From Bacteroidia bacterium (GTDB lineage Bacteria > Bacteroidota > Bacteroidia > Cytophagales > Cyclobacteriaceae): a stretch of 64,000 bases of DNA. Both the position numbers and the translations under genes were made by a program. Under the pieces are notes generated by a model. That model was not told where the DNA came from and made no database searches. It worked only from the letters and a program-made list of their open reading frames with translations. The stretch covers positions 1 to 64,000 of the forward strand of contig JAUILA010000007.1 of NCBI GenBank assembly GCA_030432655.1. The letters are read 5' to 3'. Numbering within the stretch: the first letter of the stretch is position 1; each line of letters begins with the position of its first letter. Below, in pieces: positions 5,653 through 18,617 of the stretch.

Positions 5653-6588
5653 TTATTTCTTCCAGACGGCATCGACGAAATACCTTCTTTTATCGAAGTA
5701 ATTTTCCAGTTCGGTAAACCCGGTCTGAATGGCCATCCGGGTGATGTCGTTCAGGGAAAATTTCTGGCTGACTTCGGTGTGAATCGCTTCCCAGGCTTCC
5801 AGGCTGATCTTCGTGCCATTAATTTCAAACTCCTGGTCTTCCGTACTCACCAGGTAGCTTTTGGCTGTACCCGTCATAGGGTTATATACCGGGTAGTGAA
5901 TAAATTTATCCACATCAATTCCTGCCTTCAGTTCCGTATTGATCCTTCGCAGCAAATTCAGGTTGAATTCCCTGGTCACTCCTTTCGAGTCGTTGTATGC
6001 CGCTCGTATGATCGCGGGGTCCTTTTTAAGATCAAAACCAATCAGCAATAAATCATCCCGCTTCATGGCATCATACACCTTTCCAAGAAAATTAAAGGCC
6101 AGCTCTTCCGTAAAATTGCCAATGTTGGACCCCAGGAACAGGATCACATTTCGCCTGCCCCCGTTGCGAAGGCTGTGTAACGCGCTGAAATAATCATCCG
6201 CCACCGGCTTCAGTTGAAGGTCCGGCAATTCTTCCTTCAGGTTATTCTCCAGTAACTCCAGTACATTCTCAGAAATATCAATGGGTGCGTACTCAAAATC
6301 AGCCTTCTGTTCAAGGAAATAACGAAGCAATATCTTGGTCTTATACCCATCGCCGGCACCGAATTCCACCAGGTTAAAGGGCTTGCCACCGGCTGTGGAA
6401 AGTTTAAGTAATGCCTCCTTGCTTGAGCTTAATATTTCATGTTCACACGAAGTCAGGTAGTATTCATCCAGCTTCATGATCTGCTGGAACAGATGGTCTC
6501 CTTTCTTGTCATAAAAATACTTGGAAGGAAGTTTCTTGGGAGTAGCGCTTAGTCCATCGAGAACTTCACGGGCAAATGTATCGTTCAT
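5653..6588 (-). CDS. egtD: L-histidine N-alpha-methyltransferase (EgtD family)
   Basis: The 311-residue protein has the EgtD/DUF2260 N-terminal signature LPSKYFYDKKGDHLFQQI, EYYLTSCEHEIL, a SAM-binding loop VEFGAGDGYKT and FLGSNIGNF. Family members trimethylate histidine to hercynine using three S-adenosylmethionines, the first step of ergothioneine synthesis. It starts 8 bases after the egtB stop, so egtB-egtD form one operon. Length agrees with characterised EgtD (about 320). No egtC or egtE is present here, so thiol donor and C-S lyase cannot be judged from this window. Confidence 0.85.
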   Translation of the reverse strand: MNDTFAREVLDGLSATPKKLPSKYFYDKKGDHLFQQIMKLDEYYLTSCEHEILSSSKEALLKLSTAGGKPFNLVEFGAGDGYKTKILLRYFLEQKADFEYAPIDISENVLELLENNLKEELPDLQLKPVADDYFSALHSLRNGGRRNVILFLGSNIGNFTEELAFNFLGKVYDAMKRDDLLLIGFDLKKDPAIIRAAYNDSKGVTREFNLNLLRRINTELKAGIDVDKFIHYPVYNPMTGTAKSYLVSTEDQEFEINGTKISLEAWEAIHTEVSQKFSLNDITRMAIQTGFTELENYFDKRRYFVDAVWKK

Positions 6589-6596
6589 TGATCTTC

Positions 6597-7853
6597 TTAA
6601 AGATATTTTGCCAGACGGATTCCGGAGAACATCCAGCGTAAAGGAGCATGAAAAAAGTTTCGGTATGTTTTACGGATATGTTCCCGTGGTGTTGCACATG
6701 ACCCTCCGCGAAGGACCATCTGATTGACCATAAATTTACCATTATATTCTCCGAGAGCACCAGCCGGGGCCTCATAGAACGGATATGGTAAATAGGCACT
6801 GGATGTCCATTCCCACAAGTCACCAAACAGCTGGTTATTTCCCTCAGATACAGCTTTTGCTTCGAGGTGGTTATCCTCCAGGAAGTTTCCGTGGTCCCGG
6901 GTGCCGTACAAGGTAGCTGCCACCTCCCACTGGTATTCTGTCGGCAACCGGTATCCTGCCCATTTGGCAAACGCCGCAGCCTCGTAATAGCTGATATGGC
7001 TAACCGGTGCATGAGGATCAGGATCAACAAGTCCGCCATTAAGGGAAAATATGCGGAACGCGTCACCGTCCCGGTGCCAGTGTAATGGTGCATGGATCTG
7101 CTCGCTTTTCACCCAGTCCCATCCGTCCGACAACCAGTGCCGGAAATCCGTGTAACCGCCATCCTGTATAAATTCAAGGTATTCGGCATTCGTCACCAGC
7201 CGGTCGGCCACCGCACTGGAATGAATAAACGTTTTATGTCTCCCGTGCTCATTGTCAAAACTGAAAGATTCCCCCTGAAAACCGATCTCATAGGTTCCTT
7301 CTTCAATTTCCAGCCAGTTGATTGCGTTGCGCTCACCGGCAGCCAATCCTCCCTGACGTTTCACATAGGCAGGAAAGAGCGGATTATTTCCCAGGATATA
7401 TTTAATGTCATACATCAGCAGTTCCTGGTGCTGCTCCTCATGCTGCAACCCCAGAACCAGTATCTTTTCGAGCTCTTCCGTCAGATTATTTTCAAGGAAC
7501 TTCTCCATGTGGGCATCGACATAGCTCCGGTATGCAAGCACTTCCTTAACCGAAGGCCTGGTAATATTACCCCGGTCGGTCCGCAACATCCGGTCGCCTT
7601 TGCTTTCATAATAACTGTTGAACAGGTACGCATACTCCTCCTGATACACCTTGTACCCTTCCATGTGATCAGAGAGAATAAATGCCTCGTAAAACCAGGT
7701 GGTGTGTCCCAGATGCCATTTTGGCGGACTCACATCCATTACCGGCTGAACCACATGATCTTCAATTGTCAGTGGTTCACAAATTGATTCGGTTCGTTTA
7801 CGGGTCTTTTTAAAGCGGTCGACTAAAACTGGTTCCGTGATGAGCATGCACAC
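6597..7853 (-). CDS. egtB: Ergothioneine sulfoxide synthase EgtB-like
   Basis: The 418-residue protein has an N-terminal DinB-like four-helix domain and a C-terminal FGE-sulfatase domain. The non-haem iron ligands are recognisable as H50 (WHLGH) and H138/H142 in HEEQHQE, close to the equivalent positions in mycobacterial EgtB. The C-terminal half carries WEWTSS and LRGGSC, standard FGE-fold motifs. EgtB joins hercynine to a cysteine-derived thiol by O2-dependent C-S bond formation and sulfoxidation. OvoA is less likely because no methyltransferase domain is fused, and an EgtD is encoded next door. An alternative start exists at the third codon. Confidence 0.85.
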   Translation of the reverse strand: MCMLITEPVLVDRFKKTRKRTESICEPLTIEDHVVQPVMDVSPPKWHLGHTTWFYEAFILSDHMEGYKVYQEEYAYLFNSYYESKGDRMLRTDRGNITRPSVKEVLAYRSYVDAHMEKFLENNLTEELEKILVLGLQHEEQHQELLMYDIKYILGNNPLFPAYVKRQGGLAAGERNAINWLEIEEGTYEIGFQGESFSFDNEHGRHKTFIHSSAVADRLVTNAEYLEFIQDGGYTDFRHWLSDGWDWVKSEQIHAPLHWHRDGDAFRIFSLNGGLVDPDPHAPVSHISYYEAAAFAKWAGYRLPTEYQWEVAATLYGTRDHGNFLEDNHLEAKAVSEGNNQLFGDLWEWTSSAYLPYPFYEAPAGALGEYNGKFMVNQMVLRGGSCATPREHIRKTYRNFFHAPLRWMFSGIRLAKYL

Positions 7854-10856: not shown

Positions 10857-10879
10857 AGAGGCCTTGGGCCTCTTTTTTT
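10857..10879. terminator. Bidirectional terminator between convergent genes
   Basis: AGAGGCC and GGCCTCT pair around a 3-base loop and are followed by seven T residues on the plus strand. The minus-strand side is also followed by T-rich sequence. It separates the unknown secreted gene from the convergent zinc-locus lipoprotein gene. Confidence 0.8.
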
Positions 10880-11474
10880 ATTCGATGGTCACATCAAAGC
10901 TTATATCCACATCCGTTTCACCGTCTGCCGACGTACTTGTTTCTGATTTGATATCCGGCTGGTGCTTGAGAATGATTTGTAAATCACCGGTGGTTGCATC
11001 CCCGGTTGTCCAGACCGTTTCAAGACCAAGAGGCAACGTGTTATCATCAGCATCCAGGTAATTCAAAGGATCATTTCTTCCATCAATATTGCCATTGCCG
11101 GCCGGATCAGCAAACATCCCATCGGTAAACCCAAAAAAGAACATATGCTCGGAAGCTTCCTCTTTCACTTCATTGGTGATATCCTCCACCGGATCAGCCA
11201 GTGTATTCTCCAGGAACAGTTCCAGGTGGTATTCTGTATTTGTGGAGAGCACTACGTCATCCACCACAGGATCTATGGTTCCTTCTCCGTCCTCATCAAA
11301 CCAGATGGCGGTTATTACGTCCGAAGCATCATCCCTGTTAGTAAACACTGCGGTGATCCGCGTAATTTCCTCCTCCATATTTTCAATTGGCGGCGCATCA
11401 TCGTCACCACAGGATGAAAATACAAAAGCCGCTAGACTAAGAATAACTATGTTGGCAGTTAAAATACTTTTCAT
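10878..11474 (-). CDS. Lipoprotein associated with zinc-type TonB receptor
   Basis: The 198-residue protein has a lipobox (FVFSSC) followed by an acidic stretch GDDDAPP. The pattern ITRITAVFTN, WFDEDGEG, NTEYHLELFLEN, EEASEHMFFF, LKHQPDIK, GETDVDISFDVTI matches a Bacteroidota lipoprotein family usually found beside ZnuD-like receptors. The biochemical role is unproven; metal-ligand capture at the cell surface is inference. It has its own upstream region holding a palindrome also found before the receptor gene, so the two are probably co-regulated rather than simply read through. Confidence 0.65.
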   Translation of the reverse strand: MKSILTANIVILSLAAFVFSSCGDDDAPPIENMEEEITRITAVFTNRDDASDVITAIWFDEDGEGTIDPVVDDVVLSTNTEYHLELFLENTLADPVEDITNEVKEEASEHMFFFGFTDGMFADPAGNGNIDGRNDPLNYLDADDNTLPLGLETVWTTGDATTGDLQIILKHQPDIKSETSTSADGETDVDISFDVTIE

Positions 11475-11507
11475 GAATAGTCAGTTTAAATTCGTACTTC
11501 ACAAAGA

Positions 11508-11522
11508 TGCAACACTGTTGCA
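11508..11522 (-). promoter_or_regulatory. Zur/Fur-like operator upstream of the lipoprotein gene
   Basis: TGCAACACTGTTGCA is a perfect palindrome with 6-base arms and a 3-base centre. It lies 33 bases before the lipoprotein ATG. A near-identical copy precedes the TonB receptor gene. Repetition at two promoters of one functional unit is the evidence; assignment to Zur is inference. Confidence 0.65.
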
Positions 11523-11537
11523 TTATACGCAACTCTT

Positions 11538-13946
11538 TCAGAAAGAATATGAGAATGAAATCCGGAAATTGATCCCAGGTTCATCGGCGAAATAGCGGAG
11601 ACGGTTCGTATACATCCGGTAAGAGCTATTCAGTACATTCCGGATATCGAGCCGGTAGTCTATTTTTCTCCATCCGCCGCTGAATGAAGCATTGACCAGG
11701 AAGTAAGCATCCGGCGGATTGGTGAAATCAAACGTACTGCCAGGCTGATACACGGCATTACCTGATTCCTGCGCATCCTGCACTTCACTGATCGGGATTA
11801 CCGGGGGGGCATTCCATTGGTTGAAAACATAGGCTACAGAAAGACCAATCTCACTGTTTGGCAGGAATACAATGGATGGCTTATAATTCATCTGATAATC
11901 AAAACGCAGTGGCGGGATTTCCAGAAACCAGCTCTTGTTTTTTACATCCCGGGCATACACGTAACTCATTTTCAACTGTGAATTCCAGTATTGAGAATGC
12001 CTCCATTCTCCGGCGGCATCCACCCCGGTAAAAATTGCATCGGTCTGATCATAGAGGAAAAATGGAAATGCTCCGCGTACGGTGGATGTTGTTCCACCGG
12101 GCGAGCTGAATATATAGTTCCCTATGTAGTTCACATATCCGGTAACTTCTCCTCTGAATTTATTCCGTTCCCAGCTTAATGAGGATATCCATTTTACCCC
12201 TGTTTCTGATTTCACTTCCCGGTCATCCTCATCCAGGATCACATCGGTCAGCACATTGCCATCGGGATCGATATCATAACGCCAGATTCCATATTCAATG
12301 GTTGACTGGTGCCTTCCAAACACATACAATTCAAAAACATTAGGAGGCCGCCAGGCAGTCCCGATATTCGTCCGGAAGTTCAGGTTTTCACTGATATTCC
12401 TGCTGAAACCAATGGTACCTGAAGCATTCTGAAAACTGAGCTGATTGGTATAAACGGAATTATCCTGGGCACGCCCTCGCACATCCATAGCCTGCAAGTC
12501 ATAGCGGAGACCCCATTCCCAACGGTTTTCGCCAAACATTTTGGCTTCTGTCAGGTATAAGCCAATGCGATGCAGATCATAGTTCGGGATGAATGCCACG
12601 GTATTGGTCCCGGGCTGGTTATCGTTATTCTGGTACGCGTACTGAAACCCTGCATTACCGTTCCAGCCACGAAACTCCGGATGTTCCCAGGCGCCATCGA
12701 GCGTATGCGAATACAATTTCAGGTCAATGGACGGAAGTTCATTCAGCGTTCCGCGGCGCACGTCATACTCCTGGCGGTGATTTACCTGGAATCCGTATTG
12801 CAATTCAAACACATGCTGGTCCTTGAACCATTCCCCTTTTATCTTCAGCAGATTGTGATCCACTTCCTGCCTGGGGTTATTGATGTCATAGGAGAATGGG
12901 TCAATAATGGTGGGTTCATCCGATTCAATAGCATTCTCCAAATCATCCAGGTTTCCTGCTACGGATGCCCTGAGAATGCCGAGGTTCTGGTAAAAATTGG
13001 AATAATAGGCAGTCAGGTTGTATTCAGGCTGATGATACCGGAACCCGAATGACAGGCTTCGCTCTTCTTTACCTGTGTTGGTAAGCATGTAATCCGGGGC
13101 ACGCAGATCGCCCTGCCGGATATAAGAAGCCTGAGCCAGGTAGGCGGTGTGTACATACCCCTTTTGCAGGCGAATATCAGCACCGATAGCACGGCCGTTC
13201 GAACTTACCTGAACCCCGGCACGGCCGTTCAGATCTTCATGGAGGTCCAAGGCAGGTCCGTCGATAAGGATAACTCCTCCCATCGCTTCCGGTCCGTATC
13301 GAACGGTTGCCGCTCCCTTGACGACCTGGATGCGCTCGGTTAGACTCGGATCAATCTCCGGTGCGTGCTCCACCCCCCAGTTCTGAAATTCATGCCGTAA
13401 TCCGTTGTTAATGATCAGCACGCGGTTACTGTGCAACCCGTGAATAATAGGTTTGACTACATTCTGACCGGTAGATAAGGTGGAAACTCCTGAAATATTG
13501 GATAACACATCTCCAAGATTGTCTGACCGTGAAGACTCCAGTGCTTTTCCGGAAATTTCTGATAAAGCCAGCGATTTCAATTCACCCGGCATTTGTTCAC
13601 CTTCCACAACAATACTCTCCAGGGTCACCTGATCGCGCACCATGTAAATAGTGGGAAGGTCATGGTATACATCATGATGGTGAATAACCCGCTTGTACCC
13701 TACAAATGAAATAATCAGGTCGAATTCATCCTGACAGATCTTGTTGATCTCGAAATAACCGGTGGTATCCGTAGATGCCCCTTTGGTGGTACCCTGTACC
13801 TGTACACTGGCAAATGGCAGGGGCTCCCGGGTCTCCAGGTCAAAAATTTTACCCGACACCGAATATTCGCATGTTTCATCCTGCCCGTTGACGGTATGCC
13901 AACCGGTCAGACAAATTAAGATAGATAGAAGTATGCCCCTGTTCAT
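11538..13946 (-). CDS. TonB-dependent receptor, zinc (ZnuD-like) type
   Basis: From ATG 13946 the protein is 802 residues: signal peptide (MNRGILLSILICLTG), carboxypeptidase-D-regulatory-like domain (SGKIFDLETREPLPFASV), a His-rich link HHHDVYHD, plug (HGLHSNRVLIINNGLRHE, WGVEHAPEIDP, VVKGAATVRYGPEAMGGV) and a 22-strand barrel ending SFSYSF. The His-rich link and the HGLHS...WGVEHAPEID plug are typical of ZnuD-type zinc receptors. A TTG further upstream at 13973 would add nine non-signal residues and run into the operator, so it is rejected. It should import zinc, or a zinc complex, across the outer membrane using TonB energy. Confidence 0.8.
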   Translation of the reverse strand: MNRGILLSILICLTGWHTVNGQDETCEYSVSGKIFDLETREPLPFASVQVQGTTKGASTDTTGYFEINKICQDEFDLIISFVGYKRVIHHHDVYHDLPTIYMVRDQVTLESIVVEGEQMPGELKSLALSEISGKALESSRSDNLGDVLSNISGVSTLSTGQNVVKPIIHGLHSNRVLIINNGLRHEFQNWGVEHAPEIDPSLTERIQVVKGAATVRYGPEAMGGVILIDGPALDLHEDLNGRAGVQVSSNGRAIGADIRLQKGYVHTAYLAQASYIRQGDLRAPDYMLTNTGKEERSLSFGFRYHQPEYNLTAYYSNFYQNLGILRASVAGNLDDLENAIESDEPTIIDPFSYDINNPRQEVDHNLLKIKGEWFKDQHVFELQYGFQVNHRQEYDVRRGTLNELPSIDLKLYSHTLDGAWEHPEFRGWNGNAGFQYAYQNNDNQPGTNTVAFIPNYDLHRIGLYLTEAKMFGENRWEWGLRYDLQAMDVRGRAQDNSVYTNQLSFQNASGTIGFSRNISENLNFRTNIGTAWRPPNVFELYVFGRHQSTIEYGIWRYDIDPDGNVLTDVILDEDDREVKSETGVKWISSLSWERNKFRGEVTGYVNYIGNYIFSSPGGTTSTVRGAFPFFLYDQTDAIFTGVDAAGEWRHSQYWNSQLKMSYVYARDVKNKSWFLEIPPLRFDYQMNYKPSIVFLPNSEIGLSVAYVFNQWNAPPVIPISEVQDAQESGNAVYQPGSTFDFTNPPDAYFLVNASFSGGWRKIDYRLDIRNVLNSSYRMYTNRLRYFADEPGINFRISFSYSF

Positions 13947-13968
13947 GAACGCGCAAATATATCCAAAA

Positions 13969-13983
13969 TGCAATAATGTTGCA
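13969..13983 (-). promoter_or_regulatory. Zur/Fur-like operator upstream of the TonB receptor
   Basis: TGCAATAATGTTGCA differs from a perfect 6-3-6 palindrome at one position and matches the copy at 11508-11522 in most of its bases. It ends 22 bases before the preferred ATG, where a bound repressor would block transcription. Confidence 0.6.
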
Positions 13984-16435: not shown

Positions 16436-18304
16436 TTAAAATCTCATATTTGCCCCAAGCATAAAACTTCGGCCCCTGACCGAATATCCATGCACCTCCT
16501 CATAGTCCTCATTGAGCATATTCATCGCATTTACAAATACGGATATATTCTCCAGCACCTTATATTCCGCGTAGATTTCGAGCAGGTCGTACGGGTCCAG
16601 GGTAACTTCCTCTGTCAAAAAGGTGGTCATATTAAAAAACCTATCCGTCCGCCTTCCGAATGCCCTGTACTGAACGGTCATACTGAGATTTTTTAATGGC
16701 TGTACGAAAAGATTTAACCCAAAGGAATGCGCGGGCTTGCGGATCAAATCCTGATAAGTGGAATCTCCTTCAGCGGTGATCGTGGTAACTTCCCCGTGCA
16801 TGTAGGCATAGTATCCGCTGAGCCTGAACTTATCAGAGGGCTCCCAGGAGGGTTCTATCTCTACCCCGCGAACCAGTTGCTCGTCCACGTTCTCATACCT
16901 GGCCGTATAGATGATCATGTTCCGGATATTTCGGCGGAAGGCAGTGACGCGAACATCAAAATTACGGGACAGGTAATGAATTCCCGTCTCCATGCTTAGG
17001 CTCTCCTCAGGCTGAAGATCCGGGTTCGGACCGAACTGACCGAATAATTGGGTAATGGTTGGCGCCTTAAAACCCGTTCCGGCATTTGCAAACAACCGGA
17101 ACTTACCGACCTGGAGATACGGATTGATGCTGAATGTCCAGTTGCTCCCGTACACATTGTGATGGTTATACCGCACGCCACCGTCGATGCCCCCTTTGCC
17201 CTTCCGAAAGGAAAGGTTGACGTAAGGACTGGCCAGCGAATTACCGGGAATGCTGTCTGTATCAATAGTCATTCGCTGATAAGCGAATCCACCTGTCAGT
17301 TCGAGGCCCGGGAGAATAACCGACTCCCAGATGAACTCGGAATGAAGGAGTCGTCCTGTGGCACTGAAAGCACCAAAGGCATTGGTGAAATTCCTGTCGT
17401 TTTCGGTCCAGGCGGTTAACAGGGAAAATTTATGTATACCGTACTGATGACCTGCCCGGAGGCCAGCCCGCTTCATAATACCCTCGAATACTGCTTCCGG
17501 ATCATCGGTAAACGGACCACTGTCATATTCTCCGGATAAATCTGACCAGGCAATAAACGGGCGCAGCTGCCAATTGGCCGCGGGATCCAGTTCTGCCTGC
17601 AGCGTGAACGATGTCTTGCGGAAAGAATCATCATCGAACGAACCTGAATTAAGTGTGTCCTTCGCTTCGCTGAACCCGTCGGTGGAAATACGGCCAAAGG
17701 ATGCCCGTATTCCGGTTCGGTCGCCAAGGCGAACCCGCCCCGAGACACGTCCGTTGAACGATTGATAAGAACCGAAACTTCCGTTAACGTCAGCATACGA
17801 CGCCTGATCTCCTTCTTTTGTAATTATATTGATCACACCGGCCATCGCATCCGATCCGTACAGGGTAGACTGGCTTCCTTTCAGTATCTCGATCCGGCTG
17901 ATCTCACCCGGCGGTACCATGCGGAGGTCTGCCACCCCGTTCACCCCGGACGGATCACTAACAGGAATACCATCAATCAGCAGCAGGGTATGATGCGATG
18001 CTGCTCCGCGCAAATACACCGATTTATCCTTCCCCGGATTGGAGTTTGCACCATTCACATATATTCCTGCCTGAGCAGCAAGTACCTGTGACAGGTCTTT
18101 CCCTCGGGCATTGCGTAATTCAGTGCTGTCGATGATAACGACGACTTTGCTGGTTTGCCGGTACGACTTGGGAAATTTGGAAGCGGTCACTACCACTTCG
18201 TCGAGCTTTTGAAAACTCAGTGAATCCTGGCTTTTCAGTTGATTTGGCGCCAGCCACCAAAAGGCAATACATGTCATTGCCCAGACTTTCAACTCCTTTT
18301 TCAT
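16436..18304 (-). CDS. btuB: TonB-dependent cobalamin receptor (BtuB-like)
   Basis: The 622-residue protein has a signal peptide, a TonB-box region DEVVVTASKFPKS, a plug (LLLIDGIPVSDPSG, RIEILKGSQSTLYGSDAMAGVINIIT) and a barrel ending FMLGANMRF. About 620 residues without a carboxypeptidase-like domain matches BtuB. A complete cobalamin riboswitch directly upstream makes vitamin B12 or a corrinoid the very likely substrate. No BtuF or BtuCD genes are visible nearby, so the inner-membrane transporter must lie elsewhere. Confidence 0.85.
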   Translation of the reverse strand: MKKELKVWAMTCIAFWWLAPNQLKSQDSLSFQKLDEVVVTASKFPKSYRQTSKVVVIIDSTELRNARGKDLSQVLAAQAGIYVNGANSNPGKDKSVYLRGAASHHTLLLIDGIPVSDPSGVNGVADLRMVPPGEISRIEILKGSQSTLYGSDAMAGVINIITKEGDQASYADVNGSFGSYQSFNGRVSGRVRLGDRTGIRASFGRISTDGFSEAKDTLNSGSFDDDSFRKTSFTLQAELDPAANWQLRPFIAWSDLSGEYDSGPFTDDPEAVFEGIMKRAGLRAGHQYGIHKFSLLTAWTENDRNFTNAFGAFSATGRLLHSEFIWESVILPGLELTGGFAYQRMTIDTDSIPGNSLASPYVNLSFRKGKGGIDGGVRYNHHNVYGSNWTFSINPYLQVGKFRLFANAGTGFKAPTITQLFGQFGPNPDLQPEESLSMETGIHYLSRNFDVRVTAFRRNIRNMIIYTARYENVDEQLVRGVEIEPSWEPSDKFRLSGYYAYMHGEVTTITAEGDSTYQDLIRKPAHSFGLNLFVQPLKNLSMTVQYRAFGRRTDRFFNMTTFLTEEVTLDPYDLLEIYAEYKVLENISVFVNAMNMLNEDYEEVHGYSVRGRSFMLGANMRF

Positions 18305-18401
18305 TTTCGTTTGGTTTAAATGAATGAAATAAAAGGAGTAAAAGGCCGGAATGGAAGTAAACCATTCTCATGCTTTTTACCCGAAGCATAATAAATGCAA
18401 G

Positions 18402-18555
18402 GTATTGGCAGGTCTCCTGGCTCACATCCTGTAGTCCGTCTTCCCGTTTTCACAGTGACATAATGGTACTACGCTTATCGATGATGACAGTAGCGGGAAC
18501 TGCTCCGGATTTTCACCGGATTCCCTTTTCATTCCAGACTAATGGAAACCAATAC
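18402..18555 (-). promoter_or_regulatory. Cobalamin riboswitch
   Basis: On the minus strand the region contains GGGAATCCGGTGAAAATCCG, GCTACTGT, a CGGGAAGAC segment, CTACAGGATGTGAGCC and the B12 box GCCAGGAGACCTGCC. The P1 helix is visible as GTATTGG (18555-18549) pairing with CCAATAC (18408-18402). These are the conserved elements of the adenosylcobalamin riboswitch. Between it and btuB lies a GAATGG/CCATTC hairpin followed by a pyrimidine-rich stretch, possibly the expression platform. Confidence 0.95.
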
Positions 18556-18617
18556 GAGGCAAGGATACACAAATTCCAGAAATTCTAAGAGGAGAAGAAA
18601 AATAAAGGGAAAAGAAT

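What the first reader, a model, noticed from the sequence alone, without database searches (positions are those of the whole stretch)
11508..13983. Same palindrome at two promoters of a zinc-type receptor locus
TGCAAC-ACT-GTTGCA (11508-11522) and TGCAAT-AAT-GTTGCA (13969-13983) precede the lipoprotein and the ZnuD-like receptor. The plug and His-rich link are typical of zinc receptors. The repeats point to one regulator, probably Zur, and define a candidate Bacteroidota zinc box.
Basis: partly seen in the sequence, partly recalled or inferred. Interest (0 to 1): 0.65.

Follow-up and report, generated by a model that had tools for sequence, protein, structure and literature searches.

The report
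Zinc repressor operators at zinc-receptor locus
Two matching DNA palindromes sit in the promoters of an outer-membrane receptor and its partner lipoprotein, and related genomes place the same palindrome before zinc-handling genes and before genes for a zinc-regulator-like protein, so it is very probably the binding site through which these bacteria switch zinc uptake on and off.

Summary
The palindromes are real. They are the only two full matches to TGCAAY-N3-RTTGCA in a 4.95-Mb genome, 33 and 22 bp before the start codons of a lipoprotein and a TonB receptor. The third good site precedes a ZIP transporter. In 60 genomes of the family the box (up to 1 mismatch) gives 183 hits against 7 for the reversed pattern. 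Among sites read, it precedes TonB receptors, this lipoprotein family, ZigA- and AztD-like chaperones, a HisI-type gene, apbE-ZIP pairs and zur-like Fur genes, beside many single unrelated genes. Relatives often have zur-receptor-lipoprotein clusters. The box overlaps the likely core promoter, so repression by zinc-loaded Zur is the best explanation; no binding or expression data exist here. The same 17-bp consensus was predicted for Desulfovibrio Zur in 2004 (PMC545781). The exact box is not phylum-wide: 20 of 395 genomes. The receptor fails the curated ZnuD cut-off; this genome has no ZnuA-family hit. New member of a known kind, with a conserved uncharacterised lipoprotein family.

The parts
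11508..11522 (.). Zur box 1, TGCAACACTGTTGCA, a perfect 6-3-6 palindrome; 33 bp before the lipoprotein ATG; with one flanking base on each side it reads ATGCAACAGTGTTGCAT on the gene strand
   Evidence: identical to the Desulfovibrio vulgaris znuABC-zur site in PMC545781 Table 5
13969..13983 (.). Zur box 2, TGCAATAATGTTGCA; 22 bp before the receptor ATG
10878..11474 (-). 198-aa lipoprotein-like protein with no Pfam or NCBIfam match; confident Ig-like beta-sandwich model; Glu102, Glu106, His110, Asp143 and His171 are among the 12 invariant columns of 35 sequences
11538..13946 (-). 802-aa TonB-dependent receptor: carboxypeptidase-regulatory domain (with HHHDVYHD inside it), plug, barrel
13954..13961 (-). 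TATATTTG, matches the Bacteroidota -7 element TAnnTTTG, 7 bp downstream of box 2 and 7 nt before the ATG
   Evidence: enrichment of this element near boxes; the consensus is recalled
11502..11509 (-). CATCTTTG, one-off match to TAnnTTTG that overlaps the 3' end of box 1
   Evidence: inference
11530..11532 (-). TTG, candidate -33 element 20 bp upstream of that -7 match, so that box 1 fills most of the spacer
   Evidence: inference

Best explanation
The two palindromes are operators of a Fur-family zinc repressor (Zur). When the cell has enough zinc, a Zn-loaded Zur dimer binds the 15-17 bp dyad (A)TGCAAC-N3-GTTGCA(T), which lies on the -33/spacer/-7 part of the promoter, and keeps RNA polymerase off. 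When zinc runs out, Zur releases the DNA. The outer-membrane receptor and the lipoprotein are then made, each from its own promoter, together with a ZIP-type inner-membrane importer on another contig. Shown: the sites, their rarity, their position on promoter-like sequence, the recurrent association of the box with zinc-type genes and with zur-like genes in relatives, and the zur-receptor-lipoprotein gene cluster in relatives. Inferred: that the Fur-family protein on contig C41 is the one that binds, that the co-repressor is zinc, that the effect is repression, and that the receptor carries zinc.
For: Rarity and placement: the only two full matches in the genome are both here; the next best upstream site ends 13 bp before the ATG of a ZIP transporter, Pfam PF02535 1.1e-19. 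Conservation: 183 forward hits against 7 reversed-control hits in 60 family genomes, own included; 53 of 60 have a hit (summed, control summed by reading). Targets: Pfam/NCBIfam checks of representatives give TonB receptors, MerC, cobW (ZigA model 555.9 bits, cut-off 600), AztD-like (3e-24, below cut-off), HisI, ApbE followed by ZIP, and Fur. Regulator link: in 5 of 19 further exact-hit loci of the phylum sample a Fur-family gene starts within 60 bp of the box, one of them divergent from a ZIP gene. Gene-first test: box with up to 2 mismatches before receptor, lipoprotein or zur in 26 of 40 family loci and 36 of 53 loci of named records. Per gene: lipoprotein 31 of 52, receptor 15 of 46, zur 10 of 18, other ORFs over 150 aa in the same loci 13 of 262. 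Promoter: TAnnTTTG in 48 of 127 site-gene pairs against 8.2% after shuffling the flanks, with preferred offsets. Co-occurrence of zur-profile hit and box in 60 genomes: Fisher p = 0.0004. The zur candidate scores best, by narrow margins, against the Zur model in NCBIfam (38.5 bits, a Fur model 37.3) and against two solved zinc uptake regulators (E 1.6e-6 and 3.9e-6, a PerR 8.2e-6). Its CxxC...CxxC pairs are conserved in the four zur-like proteins aligned.
Against: No binding or expression data. The zur candidate of this genome has no box and is not next to the receptor, and it scores far below the curated Zur cut-off (38.5 against 167 bits). 14 of 40 family clusters and 17 of 53 named clusters show no box within 2 mismatches. 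Two genomes have a zur-profile hit but no box and four a box but no such hit; three of the five genomes lacking both are only 82-86% complete. Of the 101 site-gene pairs grouped, 29 are genes seen once, many with no evident metal role, and 3 are ruvB genes divergent from apbE. In one relative (G002, 19 hits) several boxes precede peptidases or other secreted-looking proteins. Of 20 ZnuA-family genes of relatives, none has the box. In the ZIP test only 3 of 30 ZIP genes, and 7 of 28 preceding genes, have a box within 2 mismatches. The zur profile, the lipoprotein profile and the site matrix were built partly from box-linked genes, so some counts are not independent.
Confidence: 0.86

Rival explanations
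1. Operator of another Fur-family metal sensor, for example a nickel sensor (Streptomyces Nur box tTGCaa-N5-ttGCAA, recalled) or an iron/manganese sensor, with the receptor importing that metal.
For: TGCAA-N5-TTGCA also fits the recalled Nur consensus. NCBIfam cannot separate the small Fur homologues: L116 scores best against a Fur model and L046 against a PerR model, and for the C41 protein Zur leads Fur by only 1.2 bits. A four-sequence profile finds a PerR first among solved structures.
Against: Box targets include ZIP, ZigA-like and AztD-like zinc chaperones and a HisI-type gene. The 20 PF01297 transporters examined in relatives carry no box, and 19 of them follow another ~190-220-aa ORF that looks like a DtxR-type regulator by eye.
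Confidence: 0.07
2. RNA hairpin (attenuator or terminator) rather than a DNA operator.
For: Each palindrome can form a short stem; the site 2 region folds somewhat better than shuffles (z -2.0, 10 of 200 as good).
Against: The site 1 region folds no better than shuffles (z +0.59). The sequence, not just the pairing, recurs in relatives. Where TAnnTTTG was found, it often lies downstream of the box, which would leave the box outside the mRNA. Tandem boxes and boxes between divergent genes occur.
Confidence: 0.03
3. Chance similarity of two unrelated palindromes, or recent duplication of an intergenic stretch.
For: Only two full matches in the genome; flanks and centres differ.
Against: Relatives have boxes before the homologous genes far more often than before other ORFs.
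Confidence: 0.01

Closest known systems
Desulfovibrio Zur_D box ATGCAACNNNGTTGCAT (Rodionov et al. 2004, PMC545781; passages read)
   Same: Same dyad; box 1 with its flanks is identical to the D. vulgaris site ATGCAACagtGTTGCAT; upstream of zinc uptake and zur genes. Both are computational predictions.
   Different: There it controls znuABC-zur; here a TonB receptor, a lipoprotein and a ZIP carrier, in a genome without a PF01297 hit. Relation of the two regulators not tested.
Zur regulons with TonB receptors (Caulobacter, PMC4176598, title and start of abstract in search listings only; Neisseria ZnuD, named in passages of PMC11960050)
   Same: An outer-membrane TonB receptor put under a zinc regulator.
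   Different: Zur boxes differ between groups (review PMC6103462, passages). The receptor here has an N-terminal carboxypeptidase-regulatory domain, fails the ZnuD model and is paired with a lipoprotein whose own sequence has no Pfam match.
COG0523, HisI and other paralogues in Zur regulons (Haas et al. 2009, PMC2770081, passages)
   Same: cobW (ZigA-like) and HisI-type genes carry the box in relatives.
   Different: [quoted passage not shown] 'Bacteroid', 'Flavobacter' and 'Gramella' do not occur in its text and 'Cytophaga' occurs once, in a urease table. Its supplements were not seen.

Membership tests
Zur regulon / Zur box | Palindromic operator in the promoter of zinc-acquisition genes | tested here: met
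   sites and promoter position; targets in relatives. That the window's receptor takes up zinc is inferred
Zur regulon / Zur box | Fur-family regulator with CxxC...CxxC structural zinc site encoded in the genome | tested here: met
   Four Fur-family genes; C41 protein has C96, C99, C132, C135, invariant among four zur-like proteins
Zur regulon / Zur box | Regulator passes the curated Zur model | tested here: not met
   NF008646 38.5 bits against a cut-off of 167, though it is the best model by 1.2 bits. So the protein is called Zur-like, not a member of that equivalog
Zur regulon / Zur box | Regulator gene itself linked to the box or the target genes | tested here: met
   Met in relatives, not in this genome
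Zur regulon / Zur box | Zinc-dependent DNA binding and derepression on zinc starvation | not testable with these tools
   needs protein and RNA
Desulfovibrio-type Zur box ATGCAACNNNGTTGCAT | Sequence match | tested here: met
   box 1 exact over 17 bp; box 2 differs at one half-site base and one flank base
Desulfovibrio-type Zur box ATGCAACNNNGTTGCAT | Regulator orthologous to Zur_D | not tested
   no named Desulfovibrio sequence fetched
ZnuD zinc receptor | Passes NCBIfam NF038289 | tested here: not met
   58.1 bits, cut-off 950
TonB-dependent receptor | Plug and barrel domains over Pfam cut-offs | tested here: met
   PF07715 65.1 bits, PF00593 56.1 bits

The most novel reading that the evidence does not exclude
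The lipoprotein is a dedicated zinc-capturing partner of the receptor: a new, Zur-controlled family of outer-membrane zinc lipoproteins that works with its TonB receptor as SusD works with SusC, or as a zinc chaperone. zur-receptor-lipoprotein would then be a self-regulating zinc-scavenging module spread through Cytophagales and Saprospiraceae, feeding a ZIP carrier where no ZnuABC is present.
Probability: 0.4. Interest if true: 0.65.

Novelty: new member of a known kind. Interest (0 to 1): 0.5.

Why it matters
I found no Zur box for any member of Bacteroidota in ten searches of one open library (listings were capped at 12-25 papers, and subscription papers and database pages such as RegPrecise are not covered). 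A defined box lets zinc-uptake genes be predicted in this part of the phylum from sequence, gives zinc-linked hypotheses for unnamed families (this lipoprotein, a 147-aa CFFCGGAG protein, MerC-type proteins), and makes the regulator-operator pairing testable in genera with named isolates that carry it, such as Fulvivirga, Cyclobacterium or Chryseotalea.

Tried and rejected
ZnuA test: PF01297 gave no match in this genome and a match in 29 of 59 relatives. 20 of the 29 were examined and none has a box (best 4 mismatches). The ORF before 19 of them looks like a DtxR-type regulator by eye, which suggests manganese transporters.

ZIP test: matches in 52 of 60 genomes; 30 loci were read, own genome included. 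3 ZIP genes and 7 of 28 preceding genes have a box within 2 mismatches, so control of ZIP by this box is not general in the family.

Weaker sites in this genome: of 29 one-mismatch places, 23 lie inside ORFs. The other six are ZIP, one 5 bp before a desaturase-like ORF, L006, L287, L004 and one just downstream of a Fur paralogue. Only ZIP was accepted.

Lipoprotein fold: mean pLDDT 91. No Foldseek match at E below 0.001; best VIA-align Z 8.8 and RhoGDI-type Ig-like sandwiches about 7, read as a common sandwich only. No solved sequence relative at E up to 1. Pfam gave nothing for the window protein; hits to 1-4 of 35 relatives are weak, or sorting domains in two. Whether the invariant residues form a metal site was not tested.

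RNA hairpin: rejected. Fur tree: the bootstrap had not settled and long branches meet. It is used only to say that the C41 protein groups with zur genes outside the cluster, while 16 of 17 cluster-linked zur genes with a box (up to 3 mismatches) fall in another supported group of 23.

A first lipoprotein gene-first script missed 13 of 30 ORFs through a narrow text pattern; its lipoprotein counts were dropped in favour. Its zur part covered 27 of 30 loci: 2 within 1 mismatch, 3 at 3 mismatches, 22 at 4 or more. Left out: the own genome, G023, G058 (40 of 43 genomes with a lipoprotein hit; one locus each, though some have more hits). Five of those 40 loci supplied the profile; without them 21 of 35 have a box. 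One search left out receptor hits under 250 bits. One search dropped sites lying well inside ORFs, and identical contexts were counted once. The hit list was cut by the tool: I read every listed place (15 genomes) and one locus from each of 15 further genomes, 91 distinct sites, 7 of them inside ORFs.
Full report
What is there. On the minus strand the window carries a TonB-dependent receptor (11538-13946, 802 aa) followed by a 198-aa lipoprotein-like protein (10878-11474). TGCAATAATGTTGCA (13969-13983) lies 22 bp before the receptor ATG, and TGCAACACTGTTGCA (11508-11522) lies between the receptor stop and the lipoprotein, 33 bp before its ATG. The receptor has a carboxypeptidase-regulatory domain, plug and barrel. 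The lipoprotein matches no Pfam or NCBIfam family.

Is it more than chance? In the window the two-mismatch scan gives 6 matches at 4 places against a shuffle mean of 0.81. In the whole genome (4.95 Mb, 50 contigs) the dyad TGCAAY-N3-RTTGCA is matched in full at these two places only. With one mismatch allowed there are 31 places, against 8 for the reversed pattern. Of the 29 one-mismatch places 23 lie inside ORFs. The one convincing further site, TGCAACACTGTTGTA on contig C47, ends 13 bp before the ATG of a ZIP metal transporter.

Relatives, motif first. In 60 genomes of the same family, TGCAACANTGTTGCA with up to one mismatch gives 183 forward hits in 53 genomes (own included); the reversed control gives 7 (sum). 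The family contains Chryseotalea, Catalimonadaceae and Cyclobacteriaceae records, judged by equal contig lengths. I read 91 distinct sites from 30 genomes, 7 of them inside ORFs. They give 101 site-gene pairs within 300 bp. The groups are TonB receptors (13 in the main group), the same lipoprotein family (8), a 147-aa family without Pfam match (6), ABC ATPases (6), pyridine-nucleotide reductases (5 and 2), cobW GTPases (4), MerC-type proteins (4), ApbE (3), AztD-like proteins (2), Fur-family genes (2), HisI (2), several other pairs, 3 ruvB genes divergent from apbE, and 29 genes seen once, many with no evident metal role. Tandem boxes make one gene count twice in places. Representatives were checked: a cobW protein reaches 555.9 bits against the ZigA model (cut-off 600), and an AztD-like protein 3e-24 (below cut-off). 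In all three ApbE cases the next gene is a ZIP transporter. The window's own genome has the same ruvB/apbE-ZIP neighbourhood but with the box directly before ZIP.

Phylum. The exact box is in 20 of 395 genomes; the only control hit I saw is in one genome. Nineteen further loci were read. Five have a Fur-family gene starting within 60 bp of the box (L115, L116, L117, L119, L121), one of them divergent from a ZIP gene; two more (L107, L110) have a zur-profile gene nearby. Others precede cobW GTPases (L124, L125), the lipoprotein family (L109, L110), a TonB receptor (L113), MerC proteins (L111, L115, L117) and an AztD-like protein (L108). Four sites are flagged inside ORFs (L107, L114, L118, L120), and L112, L122 and L123 show no clear metal link. 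So the exact box is a feature of this family with sporadic occurrence elsewhere, not a phylum-wide rule.

Relatives, gene first. Searching the lipoprotein family found it in 43 of 60 genomes. Forty of these loci were read with about 5 kb on each side where the contig allows: 26 of 40 have a box within two mismatches before the receptor, the lipoprotein or zur. By gene: lipoprotein 15 of 42, receptor 16 of 34, zur 3 of 12, other ORFs over 150 aa 10 of 187. A zur-profile ORF is present in 12 of 40 loci and a receptor in 33; in several the order is zur-receptor-lipoprotein with the box at the head or also inside. In 53 loci from named records, 36 have a box: lipoprotein 31 of 52, receptor 15 of 46, zur 10 of 18, other ORFs 13 of 262. 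With a box: Fulvivirga, Cyclobacterium, Chryseotalea, Marivirga, Cesiribacter and Neolewinella, and 7 of 11 loci titled Saprospiraceae. Without: three Hymenobacter loci, Dawidia and Parachryseolinea among others. The two sets share at least six contigs.

The regulator. The genome has four Fur-family genes. One lies beside a peroxiredoxin-like gene and scores best, below cut-off, as PerR. Two lie in what looks like a metal-efflux island, the second with a stop codon in frame. The fourth, on contig C41, scores best against Zur in NCBIfam (38.5 bits, Fur model 37.3, Zur cut-off 167) and against two solved zinc uptake regulators ahead of a PerR; a four-sequence profile puts a PerR first. The sequence alone therefore does not decide. 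The C41 gene has no box and groups with zur genes outside the receptor cluster. Zur-profile hits and boxes co-occur: both in 49 of 60 genomes, neither in 5, zur only in 2, box only in 4 (Fisher p 0.0004). Three of the five are 82-86% complete, and related genomes are not independent.

Promoter anatomy. On the gene strand, box 2 is followed after 7 bp by TATATTTG, and the ATG comes 7 nt later. Box 1 overlaps CATCTTTG, with TTG 20 bp upstream. Across 127 site-gene pairs at 98 sites, TAnnTTTG (Bacteroidota -7 element, recalled) occurs in 48, against 8.2% when the flanks are shuffled. The preferred offsets are -6 (12), +22 (4) and +32 to +34 (18). At +33 the right half of the box would itself supply the -33 TTG. 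Occlusion of the core promoter is therefore the natural mechanism, by inference.

Zinc path. No PF01297 (ZnuA-type) match is found in this genome, while 11 of 14 control genomes ring. Of 20 such genes examined in relatives none has a box, and 19 follow a ~190-220-aa ORF that by eye is a DtxR-type regulator. The likely import route here is receptor, lipoprotein, then ZIP. Across the family, however, only 3 of 30 ZIP genes read and 7 of 28 preceding genes have a box. The receptor is not a ZnuD by the curated model (58 against 950 bits), and its closest solved relatives by sequence are a TonB-linked receptor of unstated ligand, haem receptors, colicin I receptors and a copper porin. Zinc is inferred from the regulon, not from the receptor itself.

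The lipoprotein. In 35 sequences 12 columns are invariant, among them Glu102, Glu106, His110, Asp143 and His171. The model is confident (pLDDT 91), an Ig-like sandwich with no close structural match. Whether the invariant residues form a metal site was not tested.

Known and new. Rodionov et al. 2004 predicted ATGCAACNNNGTTGCAT upstream of znuABC-zur in two Desulfovibrio genomes; the D. vulgaris site equals box 1 over 17 bp (PMC545781, passages). In reviews and a survey seen in passages (PMC6103462, PMC8000910, PMC2770081) the word stem 'Bacteroid' does not occur. Ten searches of the open library showed no Bacteroidota Zur box in their capped listings. I therefore file it as a new member of a known kind: a Zur box of known sequence, new for this phylum as far as these searches go, with a new conserved partner gene. 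On checking, the narrow margins of the Zur assignment led me to lower the confidence from 0.87 to 0.86 and raise the other-metal rival from 0.06 to 0.07.

Noticed in passing
window 18390-18568 (-) and 16436-18304 (-): The neighbouring BtuB-like receptor has a cobalamin riboswitch just upstream (120.8 bits), so two nearby receptors use two different control systems.
   Followed up: partly
window 5653-6588 (-) and 6597-7853 (-): Adjacent genes that look by eye like EgtD and EgtB of ergothioneine synthesis; not tested.
   Followed up: no
L105 (own genome contig C45, 7000-22000): Two extra Fur-family genes stand in what looks by eye like a CzcA/ZntA-type metal-efflux island; the second has an in-frame stop codon. 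Zur-like sensors beside efflux genes would be unusual.
   Followed up: partly
G002 loci L029, L087, L094, L096, L101: One 9-Mb relative has 19 box hits, several before secreted-looking proteins (M57 peptidase by Pfam in L029, sortilin-type by Pfam in L101, the others by eye), as if the regulon had grown.
   Followed up: partly
L059 2639-3079, also L019, L023, L053, L090: A conserved ~147-aa protein with a CFFCGGAGPES-like motif and no Pfam or NCBIfam match (L059 tested) carries the box in five genomes.
   Followed up: no
L027, L036, L079, L301: In three relatives the box precedes apbE of an apbE-ZIP pair beside ruvB; in this genome it sits between apbE and ZIP instead, as if the operator had moved.
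   Followed up: partly
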